Assembly: GCA_016758965.1 (NCBI GenBank)
Contig: JAEPRB010000023.1
Coordinates: 62,001 to 126,000, forward strand
Direction of reading: 5' to 3'
Origin: Circinella minor
Taxonomy: Eukaryota > Mucoromycota > Mucoromycetes > Mucorales > Lichtheimiaceae
Length of the DNA: 64,000 nt
The notes beneath the pieces were generated by a model. It was not told the origin of the DNA. It did not search any database and saw only the letters and a list, made by a program, of their open reading frames with translations. The position numbers and the translations under genes were made by a program. Positions 16,265 through 19,442 of this stretch are shown piece by piece. Position 1 is the first letter of the stretch, and every line of letters starts with the position of its first letter.

Positions 16265-17275
16265 ATGGATAGCAGCAAATTATGTGATGCACACTGCCAT
16301 CCTCATGATGACATCAAACACCTTGACATGATTCCAAAATTAAAAACCGGACATATTACAATCATGGGTGTTCGTCAAGATGATTGGGATCGTGTTGCTC
16401 AAGTAACCACACAATGCGCTCCTGGACGCTGTATTCCTGCATTCGGTAAAAAAACGTTTATTGACAAAAAAAAACAATAAAAGTACCGTAATACTCAATT
16501 GTAGAATAATTTAGGCATTCATCCGTGGTTCCTTCATCAGCTCATGATAAACGATGATGTTGATTCAGAAACACATTATGATCAAATCTTAACAGCAAAA
16601 GTCATGTCCGAGAAACAAGACATGATTCAAGCTCTCGATCCCCCATTTCCTCGGGACGAATGGGTAAACAACTTGAAACAGCGACTTATAGATCATCCAC
16701 AAGCACTGGTGGGTGAAGTTGGTTTGGATAGAGCAGCAAGATTATTACCTGGTGGAGCCATTGAATGGCATGGGGTCAAGCCTACTTCGGTTCAAACAAC
16801 TATTGAACATCAAATGAATGTATTACGTATTCAGCTCGAAATAGCACGCGAATTTCAACGCGCTGTTAGCGTTCACTGTGTTCAAGCATCCGGCCATCTT
16901 TTGCAACTGCTTCAAGAGATGGTACCTAAGAAAAAAAAGAAAGAGGCAGGGCCTCCGGTACGGCTTTGTGTGCATTCATTTGTTGGCTCACCTGGTTCAA
17001 TTCCTCAATTTCTTAAACTCGACAAAGGTTTTACTGTTTATGTCTCATTTTCCGTGGCTATCTGTAGTCGACTCGAAAAGAAAAAATTGTTTGACCTTAT
17101 CAATGCTATTCCACAAGATCGATTATTGATTGAATCCGATTTAAATACATCTCTTGGACAAGATGATGCTATGGAAGAAATCGCGAAACTGGTTGCTGAA
17201 GCGCGACAATGGTCTATTGAACAAACTATTGAAAGAACACATAAAAATTGGCATGAATTTGTTGGTCTACAATAG
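16265..17275 (+). CDS. TatD-family metal-dependent hydrolase (Scn1-like)
   Basis: Two exons, 16265-16445 and 16515-17275, encode 313 residues. TatD proteins are TIM-barrel metallohydrolases with DNase activity in some members; the fission yeast relative Scn1 was named for interaction with Cut9. Metal-site elements appear in order: DAHCHPHDD near the N-terminus, GIHPWF at the exon junction, GEVGLDR (Glu ligand), VHCVQASG and VHSF (His), and IESDLNT with the late Asp. A Lys-rich insert (KKKKKEA) sits in a loop before the second His motif. The splice restores GIHPWF, which confirms it. The physiological substrate is not predictable. The gene converges on the tau-like gene, with only 124 bases between the stop codons. 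Confidence 0.88.
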
Positions 17276-17399: not shown

Positions 17400-19442
17400 C
17401 TACTTCTGCTCTCCTTCTTCCTTCTTTTTGGCCCTAATTATTTGAAATAATGTCAATCATGTGCCATATTTAACATAAGTCTGACGCACGTATGAAGTAA
17501 CTATAAACAACTTACCTTTGCATTTCTGGCTGGATGTTTTCATCAAACCGTAATGGTTCATCATATAATTGATTATTCTCACCATCAGGTTCGTGTTTGA
17601 TATTATCAAGTGATCCAACCTTAGGTTGCGCCTCATCATATGAAATATTTTCATGAAAAATTTTTCCAGTTCCACCGCCTGGTTTGTGCTTGATATTATC
17701 CTTGGAGCCAACTTTGGATTGTGCTGCAGCACTATAGTCAACCTTTTCTTCATAAAGCTCGACATCGCCACCACCTGGTTTATGTTTAATGTTATCCTTA
17801 GAACCAACTTTCGACTTAGTAGCACTATAGTCTACTTTTTCCTCGAACAATTCGACATCCCCACCACCAGGCTTATGTTTAATATTGTCCTTGGAACCAA
17901 CCTTGGATTTGGCATGGTCATAAGACGTTTCTTCATGGAAAATCTTTTCAGTACCGCCTCCTGGCTTATGTTTAATGTTATCTTTGGATCCGACTTTTGA
18001 TTTTGCTGTAGCACCATAATCAATCTTTTCCTCAAATAATTCAACTTTACCACCACCAGGTTTATGTTTTGCATTATCAAGCGATCCAACTTTAGACTTT
18101 GCAGTTGCCTTGTAATTCTTCTTTTCCTCGAAAAGTTCGACATTGCCACCACCAGGCTTATGCTTGATGTTGTCTTTGGATCCGACTTTGGATTTGGCTG
18201 TTGCACTGTAATCCTTTTTTTCTTCAAATAATTTGACAGCACCACCACCAGGTTTATGTTTAGCATTATCGAGGGATCCAACTTTTGATTTGGCAGTTGC
18301 CTTGTAGTCCTTCTTTTCATCATACAATTGAACATTGCCACCACCAGCCTTGTGCTTGATATTATCCTTGGAACCAACCTTGGATCTTGCTGTGGTGCTG
18401 AAGCTGAGCTTTGCTTCATATAGCTTGACATTTCCACCTCCGGGTTTATGTTTAACATTATCGAGGGATCCAACTTTTGATTTTGCCGTTGCCTTGTAGT
18501 CCTTCTTTTCTTCATACAACTGAACATTGCCACCACCAGCCTTGTGCTTGATATTATCCTTGGAACCAACTTTGGACCTTGCTGTGGCACTGAAACTAAG
18601 TTTTTCTTCATATAACTTGACATTACCACCTCCAGGTTTATGTTTAGCATTATCTAATGACCCGACCTTGGATTTCACCTTACTATCATCATTATCACCC
18701 ACCAAAGAAGAATTTGAAGAAGAAGAAGAAGAAGAAGACTTTCCAAACTGAGATTTGCTTGTTTTCTTTTCACCTTTATTATTGTAACTATAATATTTTT
18801 TTTTTCATGAATTTTATCTGATAATTTTAATCATGTGTAATCTAACCTGTAATCTGGTAATTTTCTTCGGCGTGTTGGTTCGGATAACGAAGAAGTGGAT
18901 GATGGACATCTAGTACCGCTACTGTTACGCGATGGACTTCTTAGTGCTACATTATATTCTTCAATTCGAGTAGTACCTTTAGTTTAATTAAAAAAAATAT
19001 AAAACGCGTAAATTTTTTTTTTGGATTGCAATGACCTTGTTAGTTCGAAATTTGTGTAACATTTTATAATTATATTACTATTATTTTTTTGCTCCACAAA
19101 CTACAAAAACCTATTAATTATAAATAAAAAATGGTTATCGTTTTTACCTCCGCCTGGCTTATGCTTTATATTATCTTTACTGCCGACTTTACTTTTAATA
19201 TGACTATACTTTGGTAAAGATCCTGAATATATTGTTGTTCCATTACTTGATGTACTCGTTCGGCGACTACTAGATCCTGAAGAAGTGGTAGTTGACGCAC
19301 CTGAGGATGATTGTATAGTACTCTGTTTTATAGAAGTTGTTGTATTTTTCAGATAAGTTGTTGGAATCGGAGGAACAGGCGGTGCTGCTATCCTGCTGGA
19401 TCGTTTCGTTGTAGTATCGGAACGTGATGTTGTGAGCGACAT
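17400..19442 (-). CDS. Tau/MAP2-type microtubule-binding repeat protein, 13 repeats
   Basis: Four minus-strand exons: 19442-19148, 18976-18847, 18787-17516 and 17433-17400, giving 576 residues. The N-terminal 80 residues are basic and Ser/Thr/Pro-rich, as in the projection region of MAPs. Then comes one repeat (SKVGSKDNIKHKPGGG) whose GGG is split by intron 1, a linker of about 60 residues with a Ser run, and twelve tandem units of 31-32 residues in the third exon. Each unit has the form SKVGSxDNxKHKPGGGxVxLYEEKxxY. This matches tau/MAP2/MAP4 repeats in period, in the KxGS and PGGG signatures, and in the acidic-aromatic stretch between. KDN and LDN versions alternate over the first seven units; units 2 and 4 have KAGGG and the last is degenerate. 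Microtubule binding is inferred from family. The small last exon (AKKKEEGEQK) is less certain. Confidence 0.85.
17560..18690 (-). repeat. Coding tandem array, about 96 bp period, 12 units
   Basis: Twelve direct repeats of 93-96 bp make up the third exon of the tau-like gene. Units are similar in protein but differ at many synonymous sites, so the array is old enough to have diverged and is under protein-level constraint. No intron interrupts it. Neighbouring units alternate between two types, which suggests growth by duplication of two-unit blocks. Confidence 0.9.

What the first reader, a model, noticed from the sequence alone, without database searches (positions are those of the whole stretch)
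17400..19442. Fungal protein with 13 tau/MAP2-type microtubule-binding repeats
Twelve tandem 31-32-residue units plus one separate unit carry the KxGS and PGGG signatures with the same spacing and period as repeats of animal tau, MAP2 and MAP4, which have three to five. A basic Ser/Pro-rich N-terminal part precedes them, as in those MAPs. This family is generally regarded as animal. A 13-repeat version in a fungus would be either an ancient opisthokont MAP or a transferred or convergent one. Thirteen KVGS sites would allow dense regulation by KIN1/MARK kinases.
Basis: partly seen in the sequence, partly recalled or inferred. Interest (0 to 1): 0.92.

Follow-up and report, generated by a model that had tools for sequence, protein, structure and literature searches.

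The report
Fungal tau-family protein with 13 repeats
A mould genome carries an intact gene for a protein built from thirteen copies of the microtubule-gripping repeat best known from the brain protein tau; related fungi have the family too, and one such fungal relative was already named in print, so this is an unusually long member of a little-noticed branch rather than a new kind of protein.

Summary
On the minus strand, 19442..17400, a four-exon gene model (three GT..AG introns) encodes 576 residues with 13 KVGS units: one alone, then 12 in tandem at 31-32 residues. All 13 single-unit matches in the genome lie here and pass the Pfam PF00418 cut-off. Tau is the best solved-structure match (E 1.3e-38). 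Differences between unit cores are mostly synonymous (pS 0.76, pN 0.10; pN lower in 78 of 78 pairs), so the protein is maintained.

It is a real tau/MAP2/MAP4-repeat protein, but the family is not animal-only: seven named fungi have it, a 2016 paper lists a Rhizopus delemar homologue, and a tunicate has 11 units. Ten of 12 window units compared are closest to Syncephalastrum units (two tie with a starfish); a tree with fungal and animal units apart is not rejected. Whether the fungal branch is ancient or one old transfer is open: 31 columns decide little. Microtubule binding and expression are inferred. New here: the 13-unit array, the longest among 282 proteins counted.

The parts
17400..19442 (-). 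whole gene, start codon to stop codon, 4 exons, 576 aa
   Evidence: gene model with GT..AG introns; PF00418
19148..19442 (-). exon 1: Ser/Thr-rich basic N-terminus (net +8 over residues 1-78) and unit 1
18847..18976 (-). exon 2: part of the spacer between unit 1 and the array
   Evidence: frame and splice sites; this exon was not scanned alone against Pfam
17516..18787 (-). exon 3: end of the spacer, 12 tandem tubulin-binding units, start of the tail
17581..18684 (-). span of the 12 single-unit PF00418 matches of the array (genome coordinates minus 62000)
17965..18654 (-). two-unit (192-base) higher-order repeat, 3.6 copies, 83% matches
   Evidence: the second and fourth array units are 97% identical in DNA
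17403..17433 (-). exon 4: last codons, ending in ...AKKKEEGEQK; stop codon at 17402-17400

Best explanation
The gene encodes a structural microtubule-associated protein of the tau/MAP2/MAP4 repeat superfamily in a fungus, probably of or near the Mucorales (an inference: its units are closest to those of Syncephalastrum). Shown: an intact gene model, 13 PF00418 units in the animal register with KxGS, N and H kept, and strong constraint on protein sequence between units. Inferred: the protein is disordered in solution and the 12-unit array lies lengthwise along a protofilament ridge, each unit gripping one tubulin dimer (so about 12 dimers, near 100 nm; one unit per dimer is recalled from the tau cryo-EM work, which I could not open). 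The separate unit 1, held by a flexible basic spacer, could reach a neighbouring site or microtubule and so bundle. High valency should give slow release and strong stabilisation of the long microtubules of hyphae; phosphorylation of the KVGS serines by KA1-type kinases would weaken the grip unit by unit. Origin: a repeat protein already present in the ancestor of Mucorales and Glomeromycotina, perhaps of the opisthokonts, whose array grew in this lineage by duplication of single units and of two-unit blocks.
For: PF00418 over cut-off in 13 of 13 units; tau is the best solved-structure match, and a tau chain aligns gap-free over 126 residues, about four units; pN below pS in 78 of 78 core pairs; splice sites and frame intact; the neighbouring eEF2 exon scores highest with chains that include the one labelled yeast eEF2; homologues in seven named fungi; 10 of 12 window units compared are closer to a fungal than to any animal unit, 2 tie; tubulin and KA1 exons in the genome. 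Tau binds along single protofilaments and KxGS is the MARK motif, according to passages of the review PMC6468450.
Against: No expression or binding data. The linkers are more acidic than in animals (E in 66% and 83% of window units at unit positions 6 and 7, where animals most often have S and K), which could weaken binding to acidic tubulin, although net charge per unit is similar (+2.08 against +2.57). Outside the repeats the protein shares nothing detectable with seven other fungal members, so its tie to them rests on the repeats. In the single-sequence search 37 rows, all but one named as animals, rank above the first fungal hit. Window units are on average closer to starfish and vertebrate units (0.50-0.53) than to Glomeromycotina units (0.40-0.43). 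In the free unit tree the starred branches force at least two changes between fungi and animals.
Confidence: 0.83

Rival explanations
1. The family came into these fungi by one old horizontal transfer (or more than one) from an animal and then spread by descent.
For: Among the listed rows named fungi were only from Mucorales and Glomeromycotina, beside animals (five of seven placements recalled). Window and Helicostylum-type units resemble starfish and vertebrate units more than Glomeromycotina units do, as measured from the window's units. In the free tree one starred set of 10 units mixes 8 fungal and 2 animal units, and starred branches force at least two changes.
Against: The best tree found with all 50 fungal units on one side is 10.57 log units better than the free quick tree (p-AU 0.616); 10 of 12 window units are closest to a fungal unit and 2 tie. 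Faster change in Glomeromycotina would explain the similarity table. The lists stop at 120 rows, so other fungi and protists could not be seen.
Confidence: 0.18
2. The repeats arose independently in fungi (convergence).
For: Short, simple units amplify easily; the window's flanks match no other fungal member examined.
Against: 496 bits to PF00418, E 1.3e-38 to tau with a gap-free alignment over 126 residues to one tau chain; 31 shared columns.
Confidence: 0.02
3. The gene is real but its repeats serve another ligand (actin, RNA, polyanion or chaperone) and microtubule binding is minor or lost.
For: Acidic linkers and no similarity of the flanks; tau's repeat region also interacts with F-actin according to the review PMC6468450 (passages).
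Against: The positions that define the tubulin-binding repeat are the ones under strongest constraint.
Confidence: 0.08
4. Artefact: a foreign contig, a decayed gene, or a wrong repeat number caused by assembly.
For: The assembly has 619 contigs and the array is repetitive; one pair of units is 97% identical in DNA, so one two-unit block more or less cannot be excluded.
Against: The contig is 303,571 bases long, eEF2 and other fungal-like genes lie around the gene, G+C is even; open frame and purifying selection; apart from that pair the array units are 53-82% identical in DNA, which assembly can tell apart.
Confidence: 0.03

Closest known systems
Animal tau / MAP2 / MAP4 (PF00418 tubulin-binding repeat proteins)
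   Same: 31-32-residue units with K-x-G-S, N, H and PGGG in register; flexible basic part before the repeats; all units over the Pfam cut-off
   Different: 13 units (3 or 4 in tau/MAP2/MAP4 according to PMC4815063; up to 11 in the animals counted); no Cys in any of the 13 units against 0.38 per animal unit; Y/F-E-E linker positions in place of VQIINK/VQIVYK-type ones (hexapeptides recalled); N-terminus without acidic residues save one D
Mucoralean homologues (Syncephalastrum racemosum P0038, Helicostylum pulchrum P0065, Pilobolus umbonatus P0159, Benjaminiella poitrasii P0222)
   Same: same repeat; by eye a Ser/Thr-rich N-terminal part; Syncephalastrum also has isolated units before its array
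   Different: 9, 7, 6 and 4 units (Pfam gives 8, 7 and 6 for the first three); 30- or 34-residue spacing; no flank similarity to the window protein
Glomeromycotina homologues (Rhizophagus clarus P0164, Gigaspora margarita P0181, Cetraspora pellucida P0190)
   Same: PF00418 units, mostly at 31-residue spacing
   Different: 8, 9 and 8 units (Pfam gives 7 and 8 for the first two); KGG in place of GGG common; a C-terminal extension shared by the three that the window protein lacks
Rhizopus delemar MAP homologue of Suendermann et al. 2016 (PMC4815063)
   Same: fungal member of the same superfamily, among their non-vertebrate homologues
   Different: its sequence and unit number were not available to me; the passage says only that its architecture is 'distinct'
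Tunicate multi-repeat MAPs (Clavelina P0139, Ciona savignyi P0049)
   Same: long arrays, 11 and 9 units
   Different: long N-terminal part, Cys-containing units, animal

Membership tests
PF00418 tubulin-binding repeat superfamily | repeat profile over curated cut-off | tested here: met
   13 of 13 units, 41.3-55.8 bits against 27; exon-3 frame 496.1 bits
PF00418 tubulin-binding repeat superfamily | tandem units at about 31 residues with KxGS and PGGG | tested here: met
   two units have AGGG and the last has PDGE
PF00418 tubulin-binding repeat superfamily | binds and stabilises microtubules | not testable with these tools
   needs co-sedimentation or imaging
tau/MAP2/MAP4 (vertebrate subfamilies) | N-terminal region rich in acidic residues | tested here: not met
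   residues 1-78 have net +8, one D and no E; the acidic feature is as stated for tau40 and MAP2c in PMC6468450 (passage)
tau/MAP2/MAP4 (vertebrate subfamilies) | Cys in repeats 2-3 (KCGS) and PHF6-type hexapeptides | tested here: not met
   KVGS in all 13 units, linkers such as VKLYEE/VELFEE; Cys in repeats 2 and 3 according to PMC4815063 (passage); hexapeptide letters recalled
tau/MAP2/MAP4 (vertebrate subfamilies) | descent from the vertebrate MAP4/MAP2/MAPT duplications | tested here: inconclusive
   tree of 132 units: fungi apart from animals is not rejected but the tree is poorly resolved
Mucoromycota tau-repeat family | homology outside the repeats | tested here: not met
   no BLASTP match at E <= 1 between repeat-masked window protein and the 7 others; Syncephalastrum also has none
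MARK/KIN1 substrate | KxGS sites phosphorylated by a KA1-domain kinase | tested here: inconclusive
   13 sites present; 5 KA1 exons in the genome, kinase domain found beside 2 of 4 examined; phosphorylation not testable

The most novel reading that the evidence does not exclude
Tau-type microtubule binding predates animals and nerve cells: a multi-repeat MAP existed in the common ancestor of fungi and animals, was kept in fungi of the Mucorales and Glomeromycotina, and in this species was enlarged to 13 units as a very slowly releasing stabiliser or bundler of hyphal microtubules.
Probability: 0.4. Interest if true: 0.65.

Novelty: new member of a known kind. Interest (0 to 1): 0.5.

Why it matters
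Tau is known mainly as a nerve-cell and disease protein. Genuine family members in moulds and mycorrhizal fungi show that the repeat is not tied to neurons, and the fungal series from 4 to 13 units, without cysteines in the window's units and with altered linkers, would let one test how unit number sets microtubule affinity, bundling and aggregation. The fungal branch seems hardly studied: in ten full-text searches the only mention of a fungal homologue that I saw was one sentence in PMC4815063; I looked inside five of the listed papers only, at passages.

Tried and rejected
Contamination was considered and rejected: the contig is 303,571 bases long, the neighbours are fungal-like, the eEF2 exon scores highest with chains that include yeast eEF2, and G+C is even. 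Convergence was rejected on the profile scores. A phylogeny of units failed for lack of columns: of 127 inner branches 6 were starred and 76 open, and the free quick tree needed 5 changes of the fungus/animal label, of which starred branches force at least 2. The companion test of Mucorales as one clade did not finish and is not used. Flank similarity among fungal members was sought; it was found among the three Glomeromycotina and among Helicostylum, Pilobolus and Benjaminiella, not for the window protein or Syncephalastrum. A TPTTIR-like motif in three Mucorales and two tunicate proteins was seen and left as possibly chance. No structure was predicted, since a repeat protein expected to be disordered would give no useful model. 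Absence from Dikarya (yeasts, Aspergillus) is recalled, not tested: the search lists show 120 rows of 4475, 4975 and 2412 hits. Related genomes could not be searched: only the window's own was available. One literature search was set too wide and gave nothing of use.

Rows dropped: the unit tree and the column and identity tables used 132 units of 22 proteins that I chose out of 282 (12 of the window's 13 units), because units covering less of the profile were left out. One search built the tree but stopped on a naming error of mine, so it was rerun. The unit counts use a profile that I built and a cut of 8 bits, on proteins that are best-scoring hits with many isoforms of one gene; the simple pattern finds fewer units in several proteins (Clavelina 8 against 11).

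Full report
1. What is there. The minus strand at 19442..17400 carries a four-exon gene model. Exon borders are 19442-19148, 18976-18847, 18787-17516 and 17433-17403, followed by a TAG stop at 17402-17400; all three introns begin GT and end AG, and the frame runs through to 576 residues (calculated pI 9.7). There are 13 KVGS sites. The first (residue 85) is followed 97 residues later by 12 tandem units spaced 32 (seven times), 31, 31, 32 and 31 residues apart. Two units have AGGG and the last is degenerate (KHEPDGE).

2. More than chance. Pfam PF00418 (tubulin-binding repeat) scores 496.1 bits on the exon-3 frame (E 9.4e-153, 12 stretches) and 39.1 bits on the exon-1 frame, cut-off 27. In the whole genome (46.6 Mb, 619 contigs) there are 13 matches out of 15 candidates scored, all over the cut-off and all at this one place. 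Shuffling the protein 2000 times gave at most 2 KVGS. phmmer against the PDB puts a tau repeat construct first (6cvn, E 1.3e-38), then other tau entries; one of these aligns gap-free over 126 residues.

3. The gene is kept by selection. Between the 13 unit cores (16 codons) the mean proportion of synonymous differences is 0.763 and of non-synonymous 0.103; pN is below pS in 78 of 78 pairs. In the linkers (first 13 codons of 11 linkers) the values are 0.709 and 0.319, pN below pS in 54 of 55. So most units are old duplicates, far diverged at silent sites, with the binding core held and the linkers freer. One pair (second and fourth units of the array) is 97% identical in DNA; the other array pairs are 53-82% identical. 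Tandem Repeats Finder sees a 192-base, two-unit higher period (3.6 copies, 83% matches): part of the array grew more recently by copying two-unit blocks.

4. The setting is fungal. The window lies on a 303,571-base contig. On one side is a TatD-type nuclease, convergent, its stop about 125 bases from that of this gene; on the other side lies eEF2, whose largest exon scores highest with chains that include the one labelled yeast eEF2. Elsewhere in the window are a tricalbin-like C2 protein, a MUG190-like SMP protein and a SecY-family protein. G+C per 4 kb runs from 0.29 to 0.39, and is 0.353 in the stretch with the gene. That it is of or near the Mucorales is an inference from the similarity of its units to those of Syncephalastrum.

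5. Relatives. Three protein searches gave 4475, 4975 and 2412 hits, of which 120 are listed each time. Most listed rows are fish tau (judged by eye). In the single-sequence search the first fungal row is the 38th. Named fungi among the listed rows: Syncephalastrum racemosum and Helicostylum pulchrum, Pilobolus umbonatus, Benjaminiella poitrasii, Rhizophagus clarus and Gigaspora margarita, Cetraspora pellucida: seven in all. Helicostylum is placed in Mucorales and Gigaspora in Glomeromycotina by the taxonomy look-ups; the placement of the other five is recalled. The Gigaspora protein is already named 'microtubule-associated protein tau-like isoform X1' by its source. With a profile I built, the eight fungal proteins have 13 (window), 9, 7, 6, 4, 8, 9 and 8 units, and the window's 13 is the highest of 282 proteins; Clavelina and two unnamed proteins (P0002, P0115) have 11. 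Pfam gives 11 for Clavelina and P0002, and 8, 7, 6, 7 and 8 for the five fungal proteins scanned.

6. Already in print. Suendermann et al. 2016 (PMC4815063; I saw the abstract and the passages returned by word searches) include 'fungus Rhizopus delemar' among the non-vertebrate homologues of MAPT/MAP2/MAP4 and call its architecture distinct. In ten full-text searches I saw no other mention of a fungal member. I looked at passages of five papers (PMC8909800, PMC4815063, PMC6759874, PMC6468450, PMC10232483); most subscription journals are not in that library.

7. Descent, transfer or convergence. Over 31 shared columns (six more are sparsely filled) the unit agrees between fungi and animals: the S of KxGS is 100% in fungi and 93% in animals, N at position 23 is 100% and 84%, H at 26 is 96% and 91% (50 fungal and 82 animal units). 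Of the 12 window units compared, 10 are closer to a fungal unit (Syncephalastrum) than to any animal unit and 2 tie with a starfish unit; mean identity is 0.60 with Syncephalastrum, 0.54 with Helicostylum, 0.52-0.53 with the two starfish, 0.50-0.51 with the three vertebrates, but only 0.40-0.43 with the three Glomeromycotina. The unit tree (132 units, 22 proteins) is poorly resolved; its starred branches force at least two changes between fungi and animals, and one starred set of 10 units mixes 8 fungal with 2 animal ones. Yet the best tree found with all 50 fungal units on one side is 10.57 log units better than that free quick tree and is not rejected (p-AU 0.616). This does not prove a clade. 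Presence in two fungal groups with divergent flanks speaks for age; the low similarity to Glomeromycotina may be their faster change, or a separate history. One old transfer remains possible. Outside the repeats the window protein matches none of the seven other fungal proteins at E <= 1.

8. How it most likely works. Passages of a review (PMC6468450) state that tau was found to bind the outer surface of microtubules along individual protofilaments (it also mentions a rival model with binding inside), that MARK phosphorylation inhibits stabilisation by tau and MAP2, and that KxGS is the MARK motif. By homology the 12-unit array should lie along a protofilament. If one unit covers one tubulin dimer (recalled), it would span about 12 dimers, near 100 nm. 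Unit 1, tethered by a basic 79-residue spacer (net +6), could hold a second site. For MAP4 fragments bundling differs with the number of repeats, though straightness did not (PMC10232483, passages). The predicted role is long-lived stabilisation or bundling of hyphal microtubules; this step is inference. The genome holds tubulin-family genes (12 exon matches) and five KA1 exons; a protein kinase domain lies in the ORF next to KA1 in two (L015, L016) of four examined, and none was found in the ORFs of 150 aa or more on that strand in the other two fetched stretches (L013, L014). Whether these are KIN1/MARK kinases was not established.

9. Differences from tau. No cysteine in any of the 13 window units, against 0.38 per animal unit; net charge per unit +2.08 against +2.57; linker positions 5-7 are Y/F-E-E where animals most often have E, S and K. 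The VQIINK/VQIVYK-type hexapeptides (recalled) are replaced by VKLYEE, VELFEE and the like. The N-terminal part is basic (+8 over 78 residues, no E, one D), whereas the review describes the N-terminal regions of tau40 and MAP2c as rich in acidic and hydrophobic residues. So this is a member of the repeat superfamily that in all likelihood works like tau, but it is not shown to be a tau, MAP2 or MAP4 orthologue in the strict sense.

10. Verdict. Observation confirmed; interpretation partly supported; a long-array member of a known but barely studied fungal branch. Interest 0.5: many specialists would be surprised to meet a 13-repeat tau relative in a mould, yet the branch is in databases and in one published tree.

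Noticed in passing
P0065 18, P0159 12, P0222 22, P0139 407, P0049 309 (residue positions): A short motif T[PNT]T[ST]IR lies near the N-terminus of three Mucorales members and before the repeats of two tunicate members (5 of 282 proteins scanned); it is not in the window protein and may be chance in Thr-rich sequence.
   Followed up: partly
P0164, P0181, P0190 C-terminal ends: The three Glomeromycotina members share a long C-terminal extension ending in YD(E/A/S)SW(I/L), not seen in the window protein or the four Mucorales members (and the printed sequences).
   Followed up: partly
17965..18654: Two-unit (192-base) higher-order repeat; units with SLDN and SKDN alternate in the first eight array units, which points to block duplication.
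   Followed up: yes
16265..17275: TatD-type nuclease gene (Pfam match in the frame 16505..17275), apparently with a short intron before it, convergent with this gene and about 125 bases from its stop codon.
   Followed up: no
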